DNA of 64,000 nucleotides from Rhodobacter sp. (GTDB lineage: Bacteria > Pseudomonadota > Alphaproteobacteria > Rhodobacterales > Rhodobacteraceae), in NCBI GenBank assembly GCA_027487575.1, contig JAIYDJ010000054.1, forward strand, positions 47,812 through 111,811, read 5' to 3'. Made by a program: the position numbers and the translations under genes. The notes under the pieces are model-generated. The model was given only the letters and a program-made list of their open reading frames with translations. It had not been told where the DNA came from and did no database searches. Within the stretch, counting starts at the first letter, position 1; every line of letters begins with the position of its first letter. Of the stretch, positions 12,875 through 40,872 are shown in pieces.

Positions 12875-12976
12875 CGGAGCGGAGCGCCTGCGGCGCAGGA
12901 GTTTGCCTCGCGTTTCGCCGTTGGCGAACCGCTCAGGTGCGCTCCGCGCGGGGAAATTTGGGCAGAGAAGAAGGGG

Positions 12977-14992
12977 ATGGCGATGGGCAATGTATTGATG
13001 GACGTCTGGGAGACGCCGTTCGGGCTGCCGCCGTTCGGGGCGATTTCGGATGCGGATTTCGCCCCGGCGTTCGAGGCGGCGCTGGCCGAGGCGCGGGCAA
13101 ATGTCGCGTCCATCGCGGCGGACCCGGAGCCTGCGACATTTGCCAACACCATCGCCGCGCTGGAACTGGCCGAAGGCGCGTTGGACCGGGTGTCGGGGGT
13201 GTTCTACAACCTTGCCGGGGCCGACAGCACCGACGCGCGCGAGGCGTTGCAGCGCGACCTTGCGCCGGTCATGAGCGCGTTCGCCTCCGAGGTCACCAAC
13301 AACAAGGCGCTGTTCGCGCGGGTGGAGGCGGTCTGGGCGGCGCGGGACGGCCTGGTGGGCGAAGAGTTGCGGGTGCTGACGCTGTACCGGCAGATGTTCG
13401 TTCGGGCCGGGGCGCTGCTGGAAGGGGCAGAGGCGGAGCGGCTGACGGCGGTCAAGGCGCGGCTGGCGGTGCTGGGCACGGCGTTCAGCCAGAATCTGCT
13501 GGCCGAGGAGCGGGGCTGGTTCATGGAACTGTCCGAGGATGATCTGGACGGGTTGCCCGACTTTGTGGTGGCCAGCGCCCGGGCGGCGGGTGCCGAAAAG
13601 GGGCTGGGGCCGGTGGTCACGCTGAACCGGTCGCTGATCGTGCCCTTCCTGCAGTTTTCGCCGCGCCGCGAATTGCGGCGGAAAGCCTATGAGGCCTGGG
13701 GACTGCGCGGGGCGAACGGCAATGCCAGTGACAACCGGGGGGTGGCGGCCGAAATCCTTGATCTGCGGGCGGAACGGGCGGCGCTGCTGGGCTATGACAG
13801 TTTTGCCGACTACAAGCTGGAACCCGAGATGGCCAAGACTCCCGACGCGGTGCGGGGACTTCTGGTGCGGGTGTGGGAGCCCGCAAAGGCCAAGGCGATG
13901 TCGGATGCCGCGGTGCTGGAAGCGATGCTGCGGGCCGATGGACTGGCGGGGCCGCTGGAGCCGTGGGACTGGCGCTACTACTCCGAAAAGCGGCGCCGGG
14001 CCGAGCATGATCTGGATGAAGCGGTGCTGAAGCCGTACCTGAGCCTTGATGCGATGCTGGGCGCGCAGTTCGACTGCGCCAACCGGCTGTTCGGGCTGGA
14101 GTTCCGGGCACTGGATGTGCCGCTGTACCATCCGGACGCGCGGGCGTGGGAGGTGACGCGCCGGGGCGAACACGTGGCGGTGTTCATCGGCGACTATTTC
14201 GCGCGGGCCTCGAAACGGTCGGGGGCCTGGTGTTCGGCGATGCGCAGCCAGCGCAAGCTGGGGGGCGATCAGCGGCCGATCGTGGTGAACGTGTGCAACT
14301 TTGCCAAGGGCGACCCGGCGCTGCTGTCTTATGACGACGCGCGCACGCTGTTCCATGAATTCGGCCATGCGCTGCATCAGATGCTGTCGGATGTGACCTA
14401 CGGATTCATTTCGGGCACGTCGGTGGCGCGGGATTTCGTCGAACTGCCGAGCCAGCTTTACGAACACTGGCTGGAGGTGCCCGATGTGCTGTCGCGGCAT
14501 GCGCGCCACCATGCGACCGGCGCGCCGATGCCCGCCGACATGCTGCAGCGGCTTCTGGACGCCGGGACCTATGACCAGGGCTTTGCCACGGTCGAATTTC
14601 TGTCCTCGGCGCTGGTGGACCTCGCGTTCCACGAAGGCCCGCCCCCGGCCGATCCGATGCAGAAACAGGCCGAAGTGCTGGAGGCGCTGGGGATGCCGCG
14701 CGCGATCCGGATGCGGCATGCCACCCCGCATTTCGCGCATATCTTTTCGGGCGACGGCTATTCCTCGGGGTACTACAGCTACATGTGGTCGGAGGTGATG
14801 GATGCCGATGCCTTTGCCGCCTTCGAGGAAGCGGGCGATCCGTTTGATCCGGTGACGGCGGCGGCACTGGAAAAGCACATCCTGTCGGCGGGCGGATCGG
14901 AACCGGCGGAGGTGCTTTACACGAGGTTCCGGGGGCGGATGCCGGGGGTGGAGCCTTTGCTGAAGGGGCGCGGATTGCTGGAGCCTGCGTAG
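12977..14992 (+). CDS. M3 family metallopeptidase (oligopeptidase A/dipeptidyl carboxypeptidase-like)
   Basis: HEFGHALHQML zinc motif; VNVCNFAKGDPALLSYDDARTLFHEFGH. Confidence 0.94.
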   Translation: MAMGNVLMDVWETPFGLPPFGAISDADFAPAFEAALAEARANVASIAADPEPATFANTIAALELAEGALDRVSGVFYNLAGADSTDAREALQRDLAPVMSAFASEVTNNKALFARVEAVWAARDGLVGEELRVLTLYRQMFVRAGALLEGAEAERLTAVKARLAVLGTAFSQNLLAEERGWFMELSEDDLDGLPDFVVASARAAGAEKGLGPVVTLNRSLIVPFLQFSPRRELRRKAYEAWGLRGANGNASDNRGVAAEILDLRAERAALLGYDSFADYKLEPEMAKTPDAVRGLLVRVWEPAKAKAMSDAAVLEAMLRADGLAGPLEPWDWRYYSEKRRRAEHDLDEAVLKPYLSLDAMLGAQFDCANRLFGLEFRALDVPLYHPDARAWEVTRRGEHVAVFIGDYFARASKRSGAWCSAMRSQRKLGGDQRPIVVNVCNFAKGDPALLSYDDARTLFHEFGHALHQMLSDVTYGFISGTSVARDFVELPSQLYEHWLEVPDVLSRHARHHATGAPMPADMLQRLLDAGTYDQGFATVEFLSSALVDLAFHEGPPPADPMQKQAEVLEALGMPRAIRMRHATPHFAHIFSGDGYSSGYYSYMWSEVMDADAFAAFEEAGDPFDPVTAAALEKHILSAGGSEPAEVLYTRFRGRMPGVEPLLKGRGLLEPA

Positions 14993-15103
14993 GGGGGGCC
15001 AGCCCCCCGTCGCGCAGGCGCGACTCCCCCCGGGATATTTGGAAGCAGAAAATGAGAGCACGTCGGTTCACCATTCGTTAATCGGGTTGTCCCATTGTGA
15101 ACG

Positions 15104-15185
15104 GGCCGAACAGGGAGGGATCCCGATGACGGTAGCGGGAAATGGCACCTTGCCCCGGCACGCGGGGCAAGGTGTTTTCATTTTC
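15104..15185 (+). ncRNA. candidate small RNA, copy 1 (conserved core plus terminator)
   Basis: GGCCGAACAGGGAGGGATCCCGATGACGGTAGCGGGAAATGGCACC core followed by intrinsic terminator. Confidence 0.5.
15146..15185 (+). terminator. intrinsic terminator, 12-bp stem, 5-nt loop
   Basis: CACCTTGCCCCG-gcacg-CGGGGCAAGGTG followed by TTTTCATTTTC. Confidence 0.85.
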
Positions 15186-15290
15186 TGCTTCCAAATATCC
15201 CCGCCGGAGGCTTCTGGAGCCAAGCGGCTTGTCCGCGCTGGCGACCTGAAAGTCTTGCGGCGCCAGCCGCTCAATTCGACAGACGCGGGA

Positions 15291-16253
15291 TCAGCGCAAG
15301 TGGCTGGGCGGGTGGCCGAAACGGTTACGAAAGGCGCGGGACAGGGTGCCGGGGGACGAGAACCCGGTGCGCAGGGCCACCTCTGCCAGCGGGTGCCGGG
15401 TGTCGGTGATCATCCGTCTGGCCGCGGCGAGGCGCAGCGACAAGGCATAGGCGGCAGGGGTGAGGCCCAGGTTCGCGCAGAAGATCTGTTCCAGCCTTCG
15501 CGGGGACAGGCCGAGCGCCGCGGCGGTTTGCGGTGTGGTTTCCGGGGTGTCGAGGCGGGCTTCCATCCGGGCGATGGCGGCGGCAACGCGGGGATCAAGG
15601 TGGGGGTCGGGTTTCGCCGGGCTGATCTGCGGTTCGGCCCCGTCCCGCGCGGTGGTCAGGAAACTGGCGGCGGTCTGCAGGGCCAGTGCAGCCCCGTGCC
15701 GCGCGCGGATCAGATGCAGCATCAGGTCGGTGGCGGGGGCGGCCCCTGCGGCGGTGAACCGGTTGCGGTCGATGACGAAACGGTCTGGCACCACATCGAC
15801 GGCGGGATGGGTGGCCGTGAAATCCTCGAGGTCCTCCCAGTGCACGGTGGCGCGGTGGCCGTTCAGCAGCCCGGCGCGGGCCAGGACCCAGGACCCGGCG
15901 TCGATCCCGCCGATGGCCGCAAAGCGCGGGGCCATGCGGGACAGGTCGCGGATCAGCGGCGTGGTGGCGACTTCCGATTGCCGGAACCCCGCGATGACGA
16001 TCAGCGCGTCAGCCTCCTCTGCCGCGGCAAGCGGGCCGGACGAGGGCAGCTCGATCCCGCAGGTCAGGGGCACCGGGCCTCCATCTGGGGACACAACGCG
16101 CCAGCGGTAGCTTTCGGTGCCGAGATGCCGGTTTGCGGCGCGCAGCGGGTCGAGCGTGCTGGCCACCTCAAGGATCGACGACTGCGGCAGCACCAGCAGG
16201 GCCAGTGTCAGAGGGCCGGTTGCGGTTGCGAAGAATCCTGCGGGATTTGCCAT
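15291..16253 (-). CDS. GlxA family transcriptional regulator (DJ-1/PfpI plus AraC HTH), CdhR-like by context
   Basis: LALLVLPQSSILEVASTLDPLRAANR; C-terminal ARRMITDTRHPLAEVALRTGFSSPGTLSRAFRNRFGHPPSHLR; divergent from BKACE/carnitine genes. Confidence 0.9.
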   Translation of the reverse strand: MANPAGFFATATGPLTLALLVLPQSSILEVASTLDPLRAANRHLGTESYRWRVVSPDGGPVPLTCGIELPSSGPLAAAEEADALIVIAGFRQSEVATTPLIRDLSRMAPRFAAIGGIDAGSWVLARAGLLNGHRATVHWEDLEDFTATHPAVDVVPDRFVIDRNRFTAAGAAPATDLMLHLIRARHGAALALQTAASFLTTARDGAEPQISPAKPDPHLDPRVAAAIARMEARLDTPETTPQTAAALGLSPRRLEQIFCANLGLTPAAYALSLRLAAARRMITDTRHPLAEVALRTGFSSPGTLSRAFRNRFGHPPSHLR

Positions 16254-16325
16254 GAAACCTGCGTAAAACGTCAAGCGCATCGGTGCAAGCCGTGTAAGGT
16301 GGGCGGTGCAACAAGGAGGACGCCG

Positions 16326-17234
16326 ATGCCGCTGGCCATGAACCGCGAGGTTTTCATCACCTGTGCCGTGACCGGATCGGGGGGCACGCAGGATCGCAGT
16401 CCGCATGTGCCGCGCAGCCCGGCGCAGATCGCCGAGTCGGCGATTGCGGCGGCCAAGGCCGGGGCGGCGGTGGTGCATTGCCATGTGCGCGACCCGGAGA
16501 CGGGCAAACCTTCGCGCGACCTCGCGCTGTACCGCGAGGTGACGGACCGGGTTCGGGACAGCGCCACCGATGTGGTGTTGAACCTGACGGCCGGGATGGG
16601 CGGCGATCTGCTGTTCGACGGGACCGAGGCGATGGGCCGGATGTCGGCGCGGTCCGACATGGCGGGGGCGGCGGAACGGGTGGCGCATGTCGTGGCCTGC
16701 CGGCCCGAAATCTGCACGCTGGATTGCGGCACGATGAATTTCAACGAGGCCGACTATGTGATGGTCAACACGCCCGGCCTGCTGCGCGACATGGGCAGCC
16801 GGATGCGCGATGCCGGCGTGCGGATCGAGATCGAAGCCTTCGACACCGGCCATCTGTGGTTCGCCAAGGAGTTGGTGAAAGAGGGGGTGATCCCCGCGCC
16901 GACCCTGGTGCAACTGTGCATGGGGGTGCCGTGGGGCGCGCCGGACGATCTGAACACCTTCATGGCACTGGTCAACAACGTGCCTGCCGACTGGCACTGG
17001 TCCGCCTTTTCCATCGGGCGCAACCAGATGCCCTATGTCGCGGCGGCGGTTCTGGCCGGGGGCAACGTGCGGGTCGGGCTGGAGGACAATCTTTGGCTCG
17101 ACAAGGGTGTGCTGGCCACCAACGCGCAACTCGTCGAACGCGCGGTCAGCATCATCAGCAATCTGGGCGCGCGGGTGATCACCCCTGCGGAAGTGCGCGC
17201 CAAGCTGAAGCTTGAAAAGCGCAGCCCGCTTTGA
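16326..17234 (+). CDS. BKACE (beta-keto acid cleavage enzyme, DUF849) family, probably dehydrocarnitine cleavage
   Basis: NREVFITCAVTGSGGTQDRSPHVPRSPAQIAESAIAAAKAGAAVVHCHVRDPETGKPSRD; adjacent carnitine dehydrogenase. Confidence 0.92.
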   Translation: MPLAMNREVFITCAVTGSGGTQDRSPHVPRSPAQIAESAIAAAKAGAAVVHCHVRDPETGKPSRDLALYREVTDRVRDSATDVVLNLTAGMGGDLLFDGTEAMGRMSARSDMAGAAERVAHVVACRPEICTLDCGTMNFNEADYVMVNTPGLLRDMGSRMRDAGVRIEIEAFDTGHLWFAKELVKEGVIPAPTLVQLCMGVPWGAPDDLNTFMALVNNVPADWHWSAFSIGRNQMPYVAAAVLAGGNVRVGLEDNLWLDKGVLATNAQLVERAVSIISNLGARVITPAEVRAKLKLEKRSPL

Positions 17235-17563
17235 TCCACCTTGTCGCGATGGCTGGGCTGATCTGCGTGATGATGGTGCCGCGCGTCCTGCCCGACTGGC
17301 GCGGGGTGGTGGTGCTGGCGGTTCTGGCGGCCGTTGTGGCGGCTGCGGGGTGGTTTGGCTGGGCGGCGGGCCTGTCCACGGCGACCGACCGGGCGCTGGT
17401 CTTGCTGGTGGCACTGCCGGTGCTGGCTGCGCTGGCCATGGGGCTGGTGGTGCGCGGTGTCGTGGTGGCGCGCGGCTGGCCCCGCGGACCCGATGCGTTG
17501 TTGACGGCGGGCGGGGCGGCCATTCTGGTTGTCAGCTATCTGCGGTTGTTTGATCTGATCTGA
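17231..17563 (+). CDS. small hydrophobic membrane protein of unknown function (TTG start overlapping BKACE stop)
   Basis: 110-aa hydrophobic ORF tightly nested in the carnitine operon. Confidence 0.6.
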   Translation: MIHLVAMAGLICVMMVPRVLPDWRGVVVLAVLAAVVAAAGWFGWAAGLSTATDRALVLLVALPVLAALAMGLVVRGVVVARGWPRGPDALLTAGGAAILVVSYLRLFDLI

Positions 17564-17573
17564 GGGGACGGGA

Positions 17574-19025
17574 ATGGCACGGAAAGCGGCAATCATAGGC
17601 GGCGGGGTGATCGGTGGTGGTTGGGCCGCGCGGTTCCTGCTGAACGGCTGGAACGTGTCGGTGTTCGATCCGGACCCCGAGGCGGAAAGGAAGATCGGCG
17701 AGGTGATGCGCAATGCGCGGGCCGCACTGCCCGCGCTGTCGGATGTGCCGATGCCTGCCGAAGGCGCGCTGTCCTTTGCCGGGTCGATCACCGAATGCGT
17801 CGAGGGGGCGGATTACATTCAGGAGTCGGTGTCCGAGCGGCTGGACCTGAAACACCGGGTGTTCGCACAGATCCAGCAATCCAGCCACGGCGTGCCGATC
17901 GGGTCGTCCACCAGCGGTTTCAAGCCCAGCGAGTTGCAGGAGGGGGCGGCGGACCCGTCGGTGATTTTCGTCGCGCATCCGTTCAACCCGGTCTACCTCT
18001 TGCCGCTGGCCGAGATCGTGCCCTCGGTCAAGACCGACCCGGCGCTGGTGGAACGGGCGAAGGAAACGTTGCGCGAGTTGGGCATGTTCCCGCTGCACAT
18101 CCGCAAGGAGATCGACGCGCATATCGCCGACCGGTTCCTTGAGGCGGTCTGGCGCGAGGCGCTGTGGCTGGTGAAGGACGGCATCGCCACCACCGAGGAG
18201 ATCGACGAGGCGATCCGCATGGGGTTCGGGCTGCGCTGGGGCCAGATGGGGCTGTTCGAGACCTATCGCGTGGCGGGCGGCGAGGCGGGGATGAAGCACT
18301 TCATGGCGCAGTTCGGGCCCTGCCTGACCTGGCCCTGGACCAAGCTGATGGATGTGCCCGAGTTCAACGATGAACTGGTCGACCTGATCGCGGGGCAGTC
18401 CGACGCGCAGTCCGGCCACCACACGATCCGCGAGTTGGAGCGGATCCGCGACAGCAACCTGATCGGCTTCCTGCGCGCGCTGAAGGACCGCAACTGGGGC
18501 GCGGGCAAGGTTCTGCTGGAGCATGACGTGCGGCGCCGCACCGAGATTCACGCCACACCGCAGGGTGCGCCGATGATCATGGCGCGGATGCAGGTTCTGC
18601 CGGGGTGGATCGACTACAACGGGCACATGACCGAAAGCCGCTATCTGTTTGCCGGATCGGAAACCTGCGACGCATTCCTGCGGCTGATCGGGGCGGACAT
18701 GGACTATGTCCGGGGCGGGCATTCCTATTACACCGCCGAAAGCCATGTGATGCACAGGGGCGAGGCGAAACTGGGCGATGCGCTGACGGGGACGCTGCAG
18801 GTGCTGCATGCGGATGAAAAGCGGCTGCATCTGTGGATGTCGATCGAACGGGAGGGCGTGGCCGTGGCAACGGTGGAACAGATGCTGCTGCATGTCGACA
18901 TGGGGCTGGGCAAGGCGGTGCCTGCCCCGGCCAGCATTCTTGACAAGCTGATGCCGATTGCCGCGGCGCATGCGGCGCTGCCGCGTCCGGCGGCGGCGGG
19001 CCGTTACGTCGGACAGCGGGGGTAG
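17574..19025 (+). CDS. lcdH: L-carnitine dehydrogenase fused to thioesterase domain
   Basis: ARKAAIIGGGVIGGGWAARFLLNGWNVSVFDPDPEAERKI N-terminus; C-terminal hot-dog-like region MQVLPGWIDYNGHMTESRYLFAGSETCDAFLRLIG. Confidence 0.9.
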   Translation: MARKAAIIGGGVIGGGWAARFLLNGWNVSVFDPDPEAERKIGEVMRNARAALPALSDVPMPAEGALSFAGSITECVEGADYIQESVSERLDLKHRVFAQIQQSSHGVPIGSSTSGFKPSELQEGAADPSVIFVAHPFNPVYLLPLAEIVPSVKTDPALVERAKETLRELGMFPLHIRKEIDAHIADRFLEAVWREALWLVKDGIATTEEIDEAIRMGFGLRWGQMGLFETYRVAGGEAGMKHFMAQFGPCLTWPWTKLMDVPEFNDELVDLIAGQSDAQSGHHTIRELERIRDSNLIGFLRALKDRNWGAGKVLLEHDVRRRTEIHATPQGAPMIMARMQVLPGWIDYNGHMTESRYLFAGSETCDAFLRLIGADMDYVRGGHSYYTAESHVMHRGEAKLGDALTGTLQVLHADEKRLHLWMSIEREGVAVATVEQMLLHVDMGLGKAVPAPASILDKLMPIAAAHAALPRPAAAGRYVGQRG

Positions 19026-19028
19026 GCG

Positions 19029-20192
19029 ATGGACTTCGGACTTTCCCCCGAACAGCAGATGATCGTCGACGCGACCCGCGCCTTCGTGGAAACCGAGCTT
19101 TATCCGCATGAGGCAGAGGTCGAACGCACCGGCATCCTGCGCCCCGAACTGCGCGAAGAGATCGCGGCCAAGGCGCGGGCGGCCGGGCTATATGCCGCCA
19201 ACATGCCCGAGGATGTGGGGGGCGCGGGGCTGGATACCCTGACATGGCTTCTTTACGAAAAAGAGCTTGGCCGCGCGAACTATGCCCTGCACTGGACCTG
19301 CGTGTCGCGGCCGTCGAACATCCTTCTGGCCTGCACGCCCGAACAGCGCGAACGCTATCTGTTTCCCTGTGTTCAGGGCACAAGGCACGACTGTCAGGCG
19401 ATGACCGAACCCGGTGCCGGGTCCGACCTGCGGGGCATGAAATCGACGGCGCGGCGGGATGGCGACGATTGGGTGCTGAACGGGACCAAGCATTTCATCA
19501 GCCACGCCGATGTGGCCGATTTCGCCATCGTCTGGATGGCCAGCGGCGAGGAGGATACCCCGCGCGGCAAGAAGAAGCTGATCACCGCCTTTCTGGTCGA
19601 CAAGGGGACGCCCGGCTTCACCGTCCGCGACGGCTACCGCAACGTGTCGCACCGTGGCTACAACAACATGATCCTCGAATTCGACGACTGCCGCCTGCCC
19701 GCCACGCAGGTTCTGGGCGCGCCGCACAAGGGGTTCGAGGTGGCGGGCCAGTGGCTGGGTGCCACGCGGCTGCAGGTGGCCTCCACCTGTCTGGGCCGGG
19801 CGGAACGCGCGCTGGACCATGCGATCCGCTATGCGGCCGACCGCAAGCAGTTCGGCCAGCAGATCGGCAAGTTCCAGGGCGTGTCCTTCAAGCTGGCCGA
19901 CATGGCGATGGAGCTGAAGGCCGCCGAACTTCTGACGCAGCTGGCGGCGTGGAAGTACGATCAGGGCACGGTGACCGAGGCCGACATGGCGATGGCCAAG
20001 CTGAAGGCCACCGAGGTGCTTGCGATGGTGTCGGACGAGGCGATCCAGATTCATGGCGGCATGGGGTTGATGGACGAGCTGCCGCTGGAACGCATCTGGC
20101 GCGACGCGCGGGTGGAACGGATCTGGGAGGGCACGTCGGAAATCCAGCGCCATATCATCAGTCGCGAGTTGTTGCGACCGTTTGGCGGCTGA
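19029..20192 (+). CDS. acyl-CoA dehydrogenase (crotonobetainyl-CoA dehydrogenase-like)
   Basis: AMTEPGAGSDLRGMKSTA; YAADRKQFGQQIGKFQGVSFKLADMAM; IHGGMGLMDELPLERIWRDARVERIWEGTSEIQRHII. Confidence 0.93.
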   Translation: MDFGLSPEQQMIVDATRAFVETELYPHEAEVERTGILRPELREEIAAKARAAGLYAANMPEDVGGAGLDTLTWLLYEKELGRANYALHWTCVSRPSNILLACTPEQRERYLFPCVQGTRHDCQAMTEPGAGSDLRGMKSTARRDGDDWVLNGTKHFISHADVADFAIVWMASGEEDTPRGKKKLITAFLVDKGTPGFTVRDGYRNVSHRGYNNMILEFDDCRLPATQVLGAPHKGFEVAGQWLGATRLQVASTCLGRAERALDHAIRYAADRKQFGQQIGKFQGVSFKLADMAMELKAAELLTQLAAWKYDQGTVTEADMAMAKLKATEVLAMVSDEAIQIHGGMGLMDELPLERIWRDARVERIWEGTSEIQRHIISRELLRPFGG

Positions 20193-20305
20193 GACGACAG
20201 GACCGGGGGCCAGCCCCCGGACCCCCGGGATATTTAGAGACAGAAAATGAACAAGAAGAACAAATCCGCTAACCTTGCATTAACCGTCCTGCGTCATGCT
20301 GACAT

Positions 20306-20390
20306 GGCCGAACAGGGAGGGATCCCGATGACGGTGACGGGAAATGGCACCCTGTTTCGCAAGTCGAAGCAGGGTGTTCTTCATTTTCTG
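20306..20390 (+). ncRNA. candidate small RNA, copy 2
   Basis: GGCCGAACAGGGAGGGATCCCGATGACGGTGACGGGAAATGGCACC core identical to copy 1 at 44 of 46 positions. Confidence 0.5.
20348..20387 (+). terminator. intrinsic terminator, 12-bp stem, 5-nt loop
   Basis: CACCCTGTTTCG-caagt-CGAAGCAGGGTG followed by TTCTTCATTTTC. Confidence 0.8.
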
Positions 20391-20455
20391 TCTCCAAATA
20401 TCCCGGGGGTGTGGGGGCTGGCCCCCACTCGGCCGGGCAAGGGAGGGGCGAGGGC

Positions 20456-22438
20456 ATGACGCGCCTCGACCGCCTTCTGCGCCCGCGCCATATCGCTGTT
20501 CTGGGGGCCGGCTGGGCGCGCAATGTCATCGAGCAGACAGCCAGGATGGGGTTTGCCGGGCAGGTTTGGCCGGTGCACCCCACCAAGGCCGACATCGGGG
20601 GGGTGCGTGCCTACCCTTCGCTGGCCGATCTGCCTGAACCGCCGGATGCCACCTTCATCGGGGTCAACCGGTTTGCCACCATCGATGTGGTGGCGGAACT
20701 GGCCGCGATGGGGGCGGGGGGGGCGACCTGTTTCGCCTCGGGCTGGACCGAGGCCGGCGAGCCGGAGTTGCAGGCGCGTCTGATCGCAGCGGCGGGCAAC
20801 ATGCCGATCCTCGGGCCGAACTGCTATGGCGTGATCAACTATCTGGACGGGGCGCTGCTGTGGCCGGACCAGCACGGCGGGGTGCGGGTCGACCGGGGGG
20901 TTGCGCTGCTGAGCCAGTCTTCGAACATCGTGATCAACCTGACCATGCAGACCCGCGCGCTGCCGGTGGCTTATGTGGCCTGTCTGGGCAACGCTGCCGT
21001 GGTGGGGTTGGCGGAACTGGCGGGGGCCTTGCTGGCGGATGACCGGGTGACGGCGCTGGGGCTTTACGTCGAGGGGATCGACGATGCGGCCGCTTTCGCG
21101 GCGCTGGCCGAAAGCGCGCGGGCGGCGGGCAAGGGGATTGTCTGCATCAAGTCGGGCAAGACCGAAGCCTCGCGCACGGCGGCGGCCTCGCACACCGCGT
21201 CGCTGGCGGGGGGCGGGGCCGCGTCGAGCGCCTTTCTGCGCCAGATCGGGGTGGCCGAGGTCGCGACTCCGTCAGAGTTGGTAGAGGCACTGAAGATCCT
21301 GCATGTGCACGGGCCGGGGCTGGGCCGTCGGCTGTGTTCGCTGTCCTGTTCCGGCGGCGAGGCGGGGTTGGTGGCTGATCTGGCCGCACCGTTCGGGATC
21401 GACTTTCCCCCGCCGTCCGATGCGCAGCGGGCGCGGTTGGGGGAAATCCTCGGGCCGATCGTGACGGTGGCCAATCCGCTGGATTATCACACCTTTATCT
21501 GGGGTGACGGGCCGCGCACCACGGATGTGTTCACCACCATGCTGGCGGGGTATGACGCGGGCCTGTTCATCATTGATCCGCCGCGCCCGGACCGGTGCGA
21601 TCCAGCGGGGTACGAGCCTGCGCTGCAGGCCATCGTCGCGGCCGCACAGGCCACCGGGAAACCGGCATTCCCGGTGGCGTCTCTGCCCGAGAATTTTGAC
21701 GAAGGCCGGGCGGGTGCGCTGATGGCGCAGGGTGTCGTGACGCTGATGGGGATGGAAACCGCGCTGGCCGCGATCCGTGCCGCGCAGGTGACCGAAGGGG
21801 TCGCGGATTGGCGGCCGCTGGCGCCGCTGCCGCCGCGCGAGAGCGTCCTGCTGTCCGAGGGCGACGCGAAGGCGGTGCTGGAACAGTCCGGGGTCGCAGT
21901 GCCGCGCGGGGTACAGGCGACGGACCTGTCCGGGCTGGATGTGTCGGGGCTGACTCCGCCCTTTGCGCTCAAGGGTCTGGGCTTCGCGCACAAGACCGAA
22001 GCCGGTGCGGTGCGTCTGGGCCTTGCAACGCTGGAGGGGCAGGCCGACATGCCCGGGGCCGCCGGCTATCTTGTCGAGGAAATGGTGGGCGGTGCGGTGG
22101 CCGAGGTGTTGCTGGGTCTGCGGCGCGATCCGGTCTACGGGGTGACGCTGACGGTGGGCATGGGCGGGGTGACGGCGGAACTGCTTGCCGACACGGTGAC
22201 GCTGGTCTGTCCGGTGACGGAAGCCGAGGTCCTGGCGGGGTTGCGGGGGTTGCGGCTGTGGCCGCTGCTGGACGGTTACCGCGGGCGCCCCAAGGCCGAT
22301 GTGGCGGCCCTGTGCGCGATGGCGGTGCGGCTTGCCGACTTGATGCAGGACCCGTCCTTCGAGGAAATCGAGATAAATCCGGTGCTGCTGCGGGCCGAAG
22401 GGGCCATTGCGGTGGATGCGCTGATCAGGAGGGTATGA
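20456..22438 (+). CDS. acyl-CoA synthetase, NDP-forming (acetate-CoA ligase family), CaiC-like role by context
   Basis: RLLRPRHIAVLGAGWARNVIEQTARMGFAGQVWPVHPTK CoA-binding; C-terminal ATP-grasp region (PFALKGLGFAHKTEAGAVRLGL). Confidence 0.9.
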   Translation: MTRLDRLLRPRHIAVLGAGWARNVIEQTARMGFAGQVWPVHPTKADIGGVRAYPSLADLPEPPDATFIGVNRFATIDVVAELAAMGAGGATCFASGWTEAGEPELQARLIAAAGNMPILGPNCYGVINYLDGALLWPDQHGGVRVDRGVALLSQSSNIVINLTMQTRALPVAYVACLGNAAVVGLAELAGALLADDRVTALGLYVEGIDDAAAFAALAESARAAGKGIVCIKSGKTEASRTAAASHTASLAGGGAASSAFLRQIGVAEVATPSELVEALKILHVHGPGLGRRLCSLSCSGGEAGLVADLAAPFGIDFPPPSDAQRARLGEILGPIVTVANPLDYHTFIWGDGPRTTDVFTTMLAGYDAGLFIIDPPRPDRCDPAGYEPALQAIVAAAQATGKPAFPVASLPENFDEGRAGALMAQGVVTLMGMETALAAIRAAQVTEGVADWRPLAPLPPRESVLLSEGDAKAVLEQSGVAVPRGVQATDLSGLDVSGLTPPFALKGLGFAHKTEAGAVRLGLATLEGQADMPGAAGYLVEEMVGGAVAEVLLGLRRDPVYGVTLTVGMGGVTAELLADTVTLVCPVTEAEVLAGLRGLRLWPLLDGYRGRPKADVAALCAMAVRLADLMQDPSFEEIEINPVLLRAEGAIAVDALIRRV

Positions 22439-23232
22439 TGGACATGCTGCTGGAAGGGCCGATCCGCACGCGGGTCGAGGGGGCCGTGCTGGAGGTGACG
22501 CTGGACCGCCCGAAGGCCAATGCGATCGACCTTGTGACCAGCCGGATCATGGGGCAGGTGTTCCGCGCCTTCCGCGATGATGACGCGCTGCGTGTGGCGA
22601 TCCTTCGTGCGGAGGGTGAGAAATTCTTTTGCCCCGGCTGGGACCTGAAGGCGGCGGCGGGCGGCGATGCGGTGGATGGCGACTATGGCGTGGGCGGCTT
22701 TGGCGGTTTGCAGGAGCTTCCCAACCTCAACAAGCCGGTGATCGCCGCCGTGAACGGCATCTGCTGCGGCGGGGGGCTGGAACTGGCGCTGTCCTGCGAC
22801 CTGATCCTGTGTTCGTCGAATGCCACCTTCGCGCTGCCGGAAATCCGGTCGGGTACGGTGGCGGATGCGGCGTCGATCAAGCTGCCCAAGCGCATTCCCT
22901 ATCATGTGGCGATGGACCTGCTGCTGACGGGGCGGTGGTTCGACGCCGAAGAGGCTTTGCGCTGGGGGATCGTGAAGGAAATCTGCGCGCCGGGTGAGTT
23001 GTTGGGCAAGGCGTGGGATCTGGCGCGGCTGTTGGAGAGCGGGCCGCCGCTGGTCTATGCCGCGATCAAGGAAGTGGTGCGCGAGGCCGAGGCGCTGCGG
23101 TTTCAGGACGCGCTGAACCGGGTCACGAAGCGGCAGATGGTGACGGTGGATCGGCTGTATTCCAGCGAGGATCAGTTGGAGGGGGCAAGGGCGTTTGCCG
23201 AAAAGCGGGACCCGGTCTGGAAGGGGAAGTGA
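22435..23232 (+). CDS. enoyl-CoA hydratase/isomerase family (carnitinyl-CoA dehydratase-like)
   Basis: EVTLDRPKANAIDLVTSRIMGQVFRAF; NKPVIAAVNGICCGGGLELALSCDLILCSSNATFALPEI. Confidence 0.93.
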   Translation: MMDMLLEGPIRTRVEGAVLEVTLDRPKANAIDLVTSRIMGQVFRAFRDDDALRVAILRAEGEKFFCPGWDLKAAAGGDAVDGDYGVGGFGGLQELPNLNKPVIAAVNGICCGGGLELALSCDLILCSSNATFALPEIRSGTVADAASIKLPKRIPYHVAMDLLLTGRWFDAEEALRWGIVKEICAPGELLGKAWDLARLLESGPPLVYAAIKEVVREAEALRFQDALNRVTKRQMVTVDRLYSSEDQLEGARAFAEKRDPVWKGK

Positions 23233-28549: not shown

Positions 28550-30577
28550 ATGGCAGTGGTGACAGAGTTTCCTTTTGCGGTGAGCGACGAGCCGGATGTC
28601 GGCATCGTGCTGTCGGACGGGTGCCGGTTGTCGGCGCGGGTCTGGCGCGCGGTGGGGGCGGGGCCGGTGCCGGCGGTGCTGGAATACATCCCCTATCGCA
28701 AGCGGGACGGGACCTTGCCGCGCGACGAGATGATGCATCCCTACGTGGCGGGGCACGGTTATGCCTGCGTTCGGGTCGATATGCGGGGGAATGGCGACAG
28801 CGACGGGCTGATGGACGACGAGTATACTGCGCAGGAGTTGGCGGATGCCTGCGAGGTGATCGCCTGGCTGGCGGCGCAGCCGTGGTGTTCGGGTGCGGTG
28901 GGGATGATGGGCAAGTCCTGGGGCGGGTTCAACTGCCTGCAGACGGCGTTCCTGCAACCCCCCGCGCTGAAGGCGGTGATCGCGGTCTGTGCGACGACCG
29001 ACCGGTTTGCCGATGACATCCACTTCAAGGGCGGGTGCCTCTTGGGCGAGAATTTCGGCTGGGGGGCGGTGATGCTGTCCTATTCCAGCCGCCCGCCGGA
29101 CCCGATGCTGCGGGACGACTGGCGCGAGGTGTGGCGGGCGCGGCTGGAGGCGGAGCCGTGGCTGGCCCCGCGCTGGGCGGCGTTGCAGGAGCGCGGAGCG
29201 TATTGGGCACATGGCTCGGTCTGCGAGGATTACGCGCGGATGACGGTGCCCGTGCAGGTCTGGGGCGGCTGGGCGGACGGCTACATGAACACCGTCGCGG
29301 CGCTGGTGCAGAACGTGGGGGCCAAGGGGATCGTCGGCCCTTGGGTGCACCAGTATCCGCATACGGCGGTGCCGGGGCCGCAGGTGGGGTTTCTGGACGA
29401 GGCGCTGCGCTGGTGGGACCGCTGGTTGAAGGGGATCGAGAACGGAGCCGAGGACGATCCGGCGTACCGGGTGTTCATGATGCACTCTGCACCGCCGGAT
29501 GCGGCGGCGCCGGTGCGGGCGGGGCACTGGGTAGCAGAGGCCGCGTGGCCTTCGGCGCGGGTAACGCTGCGGGTTCTGCAGTTGGGTTTTGCTGCATCGG
29601 CGCCGGGGGTTTCACACCCCCGGACCCCCGTGGGATATTTGGGGACAGAAAATGCAGGCAGATTTGTCATGCGGGTCTCGACACCGCAGCATCTGGGGAT
29701 AGCGGCGGGCGAGTTCTTTCCGATGGGCCTGAACGCCGAGATGGCCGGGGATCAGTCCGGGGACGATGCGCTGTCCGTGTGCTTTGATGGGGCGGTGCTG
29801 GACAGGCCGCTCGACCTGCTGGGGGCGGCGCGGGTTTCGCTGACCCTGTCTTCGGATAGGCCGCTGGGCTTCGTGGTGGCGCGGTTGTGCGATGTGGCCC
29901 CGGATGGCCGCTCTGTCCGGCTTGCGCACGGGATGCTGAACCTGTGTCACCGGGGCGGGGCGGCCAAGCCGGAACCCATGGTACCGGGGCAGCCGGTGGA
30001 CCTGGTGTTCGATCTGGACCAGATGGCCTGCCGGGTCGCGGCGGGGCACCGCATCCGGCTGGCGCTGTCCAACAGCTATTGGCCCTTCGTCTGGCCTTCG
30101 CCCGAGGCGGGGGTTCTGACCGTCACGGCGGGCAGCCTTGGTCTGCCGGTGCATCAGGGGTCGCAGGCGGAATGGGTGCCCCCCGCAGCGCGGCATGCGC
30201 AACCTTGGAAGCACCGCGTGGTGCGGGCTGGCCGGTCGGCGCGGCGGGTCGAGACGGACCTGCTGTCGGGGCTGGTGGCATTGGTGGTCGAAGAAGACGG
30301 CGGTGACGTCGAAAATCTGGACCATGGGCTGACCACGGGCGAGACGCTGACCGAACGCTGGGAAATCCATCCGGATGATCCGCTGCGGGCAAAGGCCACG
30401 CATGTCTGGGACCAGAGGCTGTCGCGCGGAGCCTGGGCCGTGCGGACAAGGGCGTGGGCCGAGATGACGCAAACGGCCACACATCTGGTGATGTCGGCGC
30501 GTCTGACCGCCTGGGAAGGCGACCGCGAAGTGTTCGACCGCCGGTGGGACGACCGGGTGGAGCGCCGATTTGTCTGA
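28550..30577 (+). CDS. CocE/NonD family hydrolase, with in-frame repeat-derived segment (~aa 352-369)
   Basis: EYIPYRKRDGTLPRDEMMHPYVAGHGYACVRVDMRGNGDSDG; VGMMGKSWGGFNCLQTA. Confidence 0.9.
   Translation: MAVVTEFPFAVSDEPDVGIVLSDGCRLSARVWRAVGAGPVPAVLEYIPYRKRDGTLPRDEMMHPYVAGHGYACVRVDMRGNGDSDGLMDDEYTAQELADACEVIAWLAAQPWCSGAVGMMGKSWGGFNCLQTAFLQPPALKAVIAVCATTDRFADDIHFKGGCLLGENFGWGAVMLSYSSRPPDPMLRDDWREVWRARLEAEPWLAPRWAALQERGAYWAHGSVCEDYARMTVPVQVWGGWADGYMNTVAALVQNVGAKGIVGPWVHQYPHTAVPGPQVGFLDEALRWWDRWLKGIENGAEDDPAYRVFMMHSAPPDAAAPVRAGHWVAEAAWPSARVTLRVLQLGFAASAPGVSHPRTPVGYLGTENAGRFVMRVSTPQHLGIAAGEFFPMGLNAEMAGDQSGDDALSVCFDGAVLDRPLDLLGAARVSLTLSSDRPLGFVVARLCDVAPDGRSVRLAHGMLNLCHRGGAAKPEPMVPGQPVDLVFDLDQMACRVAAGHRIRLALSNSYWPFVWPSPEAGVLTVTAGSLGLPVHQGSQAEWVPPAARHAQPWKHRVVRAGRSARRVETDLLSGLVALVVEEDGGDVENLDHGLTTGETLTERWEIHPDDPLRAKATHVWDQRLSRGAWAVRTRAWAEMTQTATHLVMSARLTAWEGDREVFDRRWDDRVERRFV
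29603..29654 (+). repeat. intergenic-type repeat (C/G palindrome plus GGGATATTTGGGGACAGAAAATG) inside the CDS
   Basis: CGCCGGGGGTTTCACACCCCCGGACCCCCGTGGGATATTTGGGGACAGAAAATG matches the family at 14993, 20204 and 35785. Confidence 0.8.
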
Positions 30578-35784: not shown

Positions 35785-35850
35785 CGGGGGGCTGTCTGCC
35801 CCCCGGCGCGTTCCGCGCGCCCCCCGAGGATATTTATGAACAGAAAATGC
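35785..35850. repeat. GC palindrome plus GAGGATATTTATGAACAGAAAATG repeat
   Basis: GGGGGCTGTCTGCCCCCCGGCGCG...CCCCCGAGGATATTTATGAACAGAAAATG. Confidence 0.8.
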
Positions 35851-40796: not shown

Positions 40797-40872
40797 TGGT
40801 GGGTGATGACGGACTCGAACCGCCGACCATCTCGGTGTAAACGAGACGCTCTACCAACTGAGCTAATCACCC
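40797..40872 (-). tRNA. tRNA-Val (anticodon TAC), CCA encoded
   Basis: GGGTGATTAGCTCAGTTGGTAGAGCGTCTCGTTTACACCGAGATGGTCGGCGGTTCGAGTCCGTCATCACCCACCA; anticodon loop TTTACAC. Confidence 0.97.

What the first reader, a model, noticed from the sequence alone, without database searches (positions are those of the whole stretch)
15032..15201. TIR-bounded element with conserved core and covarying terminator, copy 1: candidate new sRNA/mobile RNA family
A 170-bp intergenic element has perfect 24-bp inverted repeats (GGGATATTTGGAAGCAGAAAATGA). It contains the core GGCCGAACAGGGAGGGATCCCGATGACGGTAGCGGGAAATGGCACC and a perfect 12-bp stem/5-nt loop terminator running into a T-rich tract. The core recurs at 20306-20351 with 44/46 identity. 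The terminator stem changes sequence between copies but keeps its length and loop size, including several compensatory pair changes. Each copy's end repeats match each other better than they match the other copy (GGAAGC here, GAGAC in copy 2). Selection on RNA structure or arm homogenisation would explain this; a coding role would not.
Basis: partly seen in the sequence, partly recalled or inferred. Interest (0 to 1): 0.82.

Follow-up and report, generated by a model that had tools for sequence, protein, structure and literature searches.

The report
Two-part guide RNA with dispersed targets
This 170-bp element is one copy of a widespread, apparently undescribed bacterial RNA gene whose hairpin loop and single-stranded guide together match a short split DNA site that flanks the gene and recurs tens of times around the same genome, changing in step with the RNA from genus to genus, which points to an unknown RNA-guided system.

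Summary
The core belongs to an RNA family absent from Rfam and present in 312 of 397 sampled genera of the same bacterial family, plus alpha- and gammaproteobacterial plasmids. The predicted ~75-nt RNA has a covarying 5' hairpin (P1/P2), an 11-nt guide and a terminator-like hairpin. The "TIRs" are cognate sites: N-LLL-TATTT-NNN-guide. LLL equals the last three bases of the P2 loop (142/149 left flanks, 124/132 right; permutation maxima 103 and 85). The guide matches the 11-nt target, with changes almost only G(RNA)->A(site), which keep G.U pairing. The same sites are dispersed at gene 3' ends, ~60 copies in this genome. In 40 genera the guide type predicted the site type (8/8, 12/12, 12/12; near zero elsewhere). 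In one genome with two loop types, sites chosen by guide alone carried the right loop triplet in 34 of 35 cases. A third RNA in this genome matches a second site family. Sequence alone cannot show whether the RNA acts on DNA or on transcripts, or which protein it uses. I favour RNA-guided recognition of dispersed sites, an RNA counterpart of RAYT-REP.

The parts
15032..15054 (+). Copy 1, left cognate site: GGGA-TATTT-GGA-AGCAGAAAATG (loop match, constant TATTT, 3-nt spacer, target)
15078..15104 (+). Copy 1, inferred promoter region: conserved TTAAYC (15078-15083) and a -10-like hexamer at 15093-15098; fixed distance to P1 in the family
   Evidence: promoter role inferred, supported by clear sigma70-like hexamers at the same place in distant copies
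15105..15133 (+). Copy 1, 5' hairpin P1/P2: P1 15105-15108/15130-15133, P2 15113-15116/15121-15124, loop GGGA 15117-15120, GATGA 15125-15129
   Evidence: covariation, MFE fold
15134..15144 (+). Copy 1, guide AGCGGGAAATG (matches arms AGCAGAAAATG with two G->A)
15146..15174 (+). Copy 1, terminator-like hairpin (12 bp, 5-nt loop) followed by TTTTCATTTTC
15179..15201 (-). Copy 1, right cognate site, inverted
20227..20249 (+). Copy 2, left cognate site: GGGA-TATTT-AGA-GACAGAAAATG
20307..20335 (+). Copy 2, 5' hairpin P1/P2, loop GGGA at 20319-20322
20336..20346 (+). Copy 2, guide GACGGGAAATG (matches arms GACAGAAAATG)
20348..20376 (+). Copy 2, terminator-like hairpin
20382..20404 (-). Copy 2, right cognate site, inverted
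29632..29654 (+). Dispersed single site GGGA-TATTT-GGG-GACAGAAAATG
35827..35849 (+). Dispersed single site AGGA-TATTT-ATG-AACAGAAAATG
12951..12973 (+). Possible site of the second family (GGGA-AATTT-GGG-CAGAGAAGAAG), cognate to the genome's third RNA (G000:C32:57962-58027)
   Evidence: one mismatch in TATTT

Best explanation
The element is a small RNA gene between two inverted copies of its own target site. A ~75-nt RNA is transcribed from an internal promoter (inferred). Its 5' hairpin P1/P2 presents a 4-nt loop, followed by an 11-nt guide and a terminator-like hairpin. Loop and guide together match a split site, N-LLL-TATTT-NNN-guide, in antiparallel-consistent order on one strand (shown by sequence). 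I propose that an unidentified protein binds P1/P2, that the RNA pairs with the complementary strand of such sites through both parts, and that the protein acts at the unpaired TATTT/NNN gap (all inferred). The RNA would be the specificity factor of a dispersed site family, as RAYT proteins are for REP sequences. It would serve to spread or maintain the sites, or to use them, at gene 3' ends and near plasmid replication genes.
For: RNA structure: 70 distinct cores keep 98.6% of P1/P2 pairs versus a shuffle maximum of 85.4%, with compensatory changes in both helices. Guide-site match in 149 left and 132 right flanks of 171 elements, spacer 3 nt in 142/149 left and 118/132 right, changes almost only G->A; chance 24/3420. 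Loop-site match 142/149 and 124/132, permutation maxima 103 and 85; non-GGA loops 28/30 and 30/33. Unlinked test: in 400 kb of G393, sites picked by guide carry the cognate loop triplet in 17/18 and 17/17. Cross-genus test: guide type predicts site type in 8/8, 12/12 and 12/12 genera with near-zero counts elsewhere. Two RNA/site families in this genome. Two RNA/site variants in G385. Plasmid RNAs have a cognate site on the same plasmid with a matching loop triplet. No orientation bias of sites in tandem gene pairs, which argues for DNA over mRNA as the general target.
Against: No transcript, protein partner or activity is shown. G368 has 37 CAGATGAA sites but no RNA with that guide was found. 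Several elements lack one or both sites within the searched range. The 3-nt loop contact is short. Target sites often lie just after stop codons in the orientation that would also suit mRNA pairing.
Confidence: 0.62

Rival explanations
1. A trans-acting regulatory sRNA. The target is RNA: the complement of the site just after the stop codon of many mRNAs (guide'-NNN-AAAUA-loop'-GC hairpin). Pairing would steer 3'-end formation, stability or termination for dozens of genes.
For: In this genome most single sites lie 1-30 nt after the stop codon of a gene whose mRNA would carry the complement. A near-fixed G.U wobble at column 62 fits RNA:RNA pairing. The order of loop and guide is antiparallel-consistent. 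On one Rhizobium plasmid the site directly follows a stop codon downstream of repA.
Against: In tandem gene pairs 17 sites face the other way against 25 facing the right way, so many sites would not be in an mRNA in the pairing sense. A large regulon changing its motif in step between genera is hard to explain without site dispersal.
Confidence: 0.27
2. A REP-like or MITE-like repeat family in which the linker resembles the arms only through common descent and gene conversion. The RNA acts on nothing.
For: Arms of one element are homogenised. GC-hairpin units recur across copies. G451 has at least three identical 140-bp copies at contig ends.
Against: Two separate RNA parts track two separate site parts, while the sequences between them (stem, GATGA and P1' in the RNA; TATTT-NNN in the site) do not resemble each other. 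The guide keeps G where sites have A. Helices covary. No target-site duplication is visible around either window copy.
Confidence: 0.07
3. A non-autonomous relative of IS110/IS1111 elements, with the RNA acting as bridge/seekRNA for a transposase supplied in trans.
For: A bipartite RNA-target match; an IS110-family transposase gene lies next to one copy (L178).
Against: No transposase gene in the elements. Both guide parts match the same strand, whereas seekRNA segments match opposite strands. In G451 the other copies shown lack the transposase gene next to the repeat, though their contigs end there. No Rfam match.
Confidence: 0.04
4. A small protein gene starting at the conserved ATG.
For: Purine-rich stretch before the ATG; conserved MT(V/A)xG start.
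Against: The codon constraints equal the P1 pairing constraints. Lengths and sequences after about residue 7 are not conserved, and the ATG context varies in some copies.
Confidence: 0.02

Closest known systems
REP sequences with TnpAREP/RAYT (REPtrons, REPINs; PMC8266576, PMC8049555)
   Same: Dispersed short intergenic repeats, a few trans-factor genes per genome flanked by inverted cognate repeats, several families per genome, factor and repeat co-evolving
   Different: Here the specificity factor is an RNA with a split guide; no transposase gene is in the element; the site is defined by N-LLL-TATTT-NNN-guide
IS110 bridge RNA / IS1111 seekRNA (PMC11208160, PMC11187229)
   Same: Short structured RNA with two separate segments matching one site
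   Different: No DEDD transposase in the element; both segments match the same strand; tens of matching sites per genome; no donor/target double loop recognised
TIGR-Tas (PMC12045711)
   Same: Two short guide segments in one small RNA
   Different: No tandem array; a single gene with its own terminator; both parts match one strand; Tas protein not found, and no box D recognised
naRNA4 / REP325 / HU of E. coli (PMC6907758)
   Same: Repeat-encoded non-coding RNA that contacts repeat DNA elsewhere
   Different: No conserved 5' hairpin plus guide architecture or guide-site co-evolution is described in the passages read
Hfq-type trans-acting sRNAs
   Same: Size and promoter-guide-terminator layout
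   Different: Targets would be a repeated 3'-end module in many genes; the hairpin loop is a second specificity part

Membership tests
Any Rfam 15 family | Match above the family's gathering score | tested here: not met
   weak chance matches only
REP/RAYT | Dispersed repeats with cognate trans-factor encoded between inverted repeats | tested here: met
   factor is an RNA here
REP/RAYT | HuH (Y1) transposase encoded with the repeats | tested here: not met
   no open reading frame of that size between the arms of the 170-bp elements; presence elsewhere in the genome not tested
IS110/IS1111 | DEDD transposase gene in the element | tested here: not met
   only one adjacent case, L178
IS110/IS1111 | RNA segments match opposite strands of the target | tested here: not met
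   both match the same strand; rule
MITE (TIR transposon) | Target-site duplication | tested here: not met
   no duplication visible around 15032-15201 or 20227-20404
TIGR-Tas | Tandem array of dual-spacer units | tested here: not met
   one unit per locus
TIGR-Tas | Nop-domain Tas protein | not tested
Trans-acting sRNA | Detected transcript | not testable with these tools
   two sRNA surveys were consulted by term search only; no match could be established

The most novel reading that the evidence does not exclude
A new class of RNA-guided system: a ~75-nt RNA with a split guide (hairpin loop plus linear segment) directs an unknown effector to tens of dispersed sites per genome. Several orthogonal RNA/site families coexist in one cell and are re-programmed from genus to genus. 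Plasmid-borne versions pair one RNA with one or two sites near repA.
Probability: 0.6. Interest if true: 0.95.

Novelty: categorically new. Interest (0 to 1): 0.88.

Why it matters
A large bacterial family would carry an overlooked RNA-guided recognition system, with natural re-targeting recorded across hundreds of genera. It would account for a common but unexplained repeat at gene ends. It supplies a split guide with tens of built-in positive-control sites, and a handle to find the partner protein by RNA pull-down. It also offers a testable RNA counterpart to RAYT-REP evolution.

Tried and rejected
Leader peptide or attenuator of the downstream CoA ligase: rejected, because the element occurs in both orientations at that site (26 versus 10) and at unrelated loci. 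Small protein: rejected. Guide pairing only with the element's own right arm: insufficient, because copies with no right site found (L164, L278, L307, L309) still match a direct site. CtrA box for TTAACC: the half-site is conserved but a full TTAA-N7-TTAA is not general; left open. Phage records gave no convincing homologue; one viral contig carries the core without a recognisable site. Paper searches for the core sequence and for Rhodobacterales repeats found nothing relevant. I predicted that G368 would have a second RNA matching its 37 CAGATGAA sites; the other two RNAs found there do not match them. Neighbouring genes of distant copies were scanned for a partner protein; no common protein emerged apart from plasmid replication and transfer genes.

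Full report
Checking the observation. The arms, core and hairpin are as described. The two differences between the cores of copy 1 and copy 2 (AGC/GAC) recur in their respective arms. That was the first hint that the linker after the hairpin and the arms are coupled.

Family. A covariance model of the 66-nt core finds three copies in this genome. It also matches 312 of 397 genomes, each from a different genus of the same family, mostly 1-5 copies each. In a class-wide sample, eight genomes of other families match too. Rfam has no matching family. In distant families the core GCGGTACAGGCGGGGACGCCGATGACCGC is preceded by sigma70-like hexamers and followed by an intrinsic terminator with a U tract (L171-L173), so the transcript is inferred to begin at P1. 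In 70 distinct cores the P1 and P2 pairs are kept in 98.6% of cells (shuffle maximum 85.4%). P2 stems include GGCG/CGCC, GGCU/AGCC, GGGA/UCCC, GGCA/UGCC and GGGG/CCCC; P1 outer pairs are A-U, G-C and G.U. The Methylorubrum and Ancylobacter plasmid copies show GCCA/UGGC (by inspection).

Guide and arms. In nearly every element the 11 nt after P1 match the arms. In 171 elements a cognate site TATTT-NNN-target was found within 180 nt upstream in 149 and within about 230 nt downstream in 132; the chance rate is 24 of 3420 random stretches. The differences are G in the RNA and A in the site, above all at column 62 (116/149), so pairing with the opposite strand is kept by G.U. The site search tolerated G->A and T->C alike; only G->A is common.

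Loop and arms. Paralogues have different P2 loops: GGGA, GGAG, GGGG, GAGG, GGAA, GAGA, TGAG. The loop reappears just before TATTT in that element's own sites: last three bases 142/149 and 124/132, and 28/30 and 30/33 when the common GGA is excluded. Loop bases were not used to find the sites.

Dispersed sites. This genome has 93 GGATATTT sites. About 61 continue as NNN-(GAC|AGC|AAC)AGAAAATG and about 9 resemble GCAGAGAAGAAG. The third RNA (L054) has guide CAGAGGAGAAG, matching the second family. With guide type fixed beforehand from the RNA loci, 40 genomes were scanned. CAGAAAATG sites occur in all 8 type-A genomes (7-65) and in 0 of 32 others. CAGATGAA sites occur in all 12 type-B genomes (2-58) and rarely elsewhere, except G368 with 37. 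CAGAAGAA sites occur in all 12 type-C genomes (5-75), plus one site in G243. Reversed control patterns gave 0. Finer variants also track: G385 has ACAG and CCAG sites and two RNAs with those guides; G089 has TCAG sites and a GTCAGG guide; G277 has AACAG sites and an AACGG guide. In 400 kb of G393, sites chosen by guide alone end in GGA for the loop-GGGA RNAs (17/18) and AGG for the loop-GAGG RNA (17/17). In G079 the split is GGA 7/10 versus GAG 9/12, with no crossover between those two triplets.

Where the sites lie. They sit at gene 3' ends, often between convergent genes, and are rare between divergent genes. In tandem pairs the orientation is not clearly biased (17 versus 25), so mRNA pairing alone does not explain them. 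The RNA gene itself recurs between an acyl-CoA dehydrogenase and a CoA-ligase gene in both orientations (26 and 10), between cobO-like and cobQ-like genes, and next to a dnaE2-like gene (gene names by sequence inspection, not by a family search).

Plasmids. The RNA is unannotated on many small alphaproteobacterial plasmids and on Legionella and Thiothrix plasmids. On RPA-type plasmids it lies about 330-600 bp from repA, usually convergent. Most have one cognate site 34-1890 bp upstream with a matching loop triplet: AGG, GGA or GAG. No cognate site was found for the Cereibacter, Thiothrix and one Shinella plasmid copy in the stretches read. In one Shinella and one Mesorhizobium plasmid, toxin-antitoxin genes lie between site and RNA.

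Interpretation. Shown by sequence: structure, family, and two-part co-variation with linked and unlinked sites. Inferred: transcription, base pairing, partner protein. Unresolved: DNA or RNA target, and mobility versus function. The closest analogy is RAYT-REP with an RNA as specificity factor. IS110/IS1111 RNAs fail on transposase and strand arrangement.

Limits. Elements were gathered by similarity to the model, so diverged members are under-sampled. Sites were defined by exact or near-exact patterns. Loci in these counts include some near-relatives, so counts are not independent events. G368 and G346 are imperfect fits.

Noticed in passing
window 15300-23230: Cluster resembling carnitine/betaine-type catabolism by sequence inspection: AraC-type regulator, BKACE-like enzyme, L-carnitine dehydrogenase-like fusion, acyl-CoA dehydrogenase, CoA ligase, enoyl-CoA hydratase. 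Copy 2 lies between the dehydrogenase and the ligase, a position shared by many genera in both orientations.
   Followed up: partly
G302:C2:180433-180495, G346:C11:442918-442980, G258:C131:12106-12167 and others (L287-L294): Two cognate sites face each other about 10-21 bp apart with no RNA between them; such mini-pairs recur in several genera.
   Followed up: partly
G368: 37 CAGATGAA sites but no RNA with a matching guide was found; the RNA may have been lost or re-targeted recently.
   Followed up: partly
L284-L286 (G451): At least three identical 140-bp copies at contig ends, one with the RNA next to an IS110-family transposase gene; suggests recent copying.
   Followed up: partly
L281, L278, L277 (plasmids): Toxin-antitoxin genes sit next to the RNA; in L281 and L278 they lie between the cognate site and the RNA.
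   Followed up: partly
L043, L050: Cobalamin riboswitches lie in the same loci as the cobO/cobQ-linked copies.
   Followed up: no
window 12951-12973: A second-family-like site directly before the start of the M3-type peptidase gene at 12977.
   Followed up: no
window 40800-40872: A tRNA gene on the minus strand, the only Rfam hit in the window.
   Followed up: no
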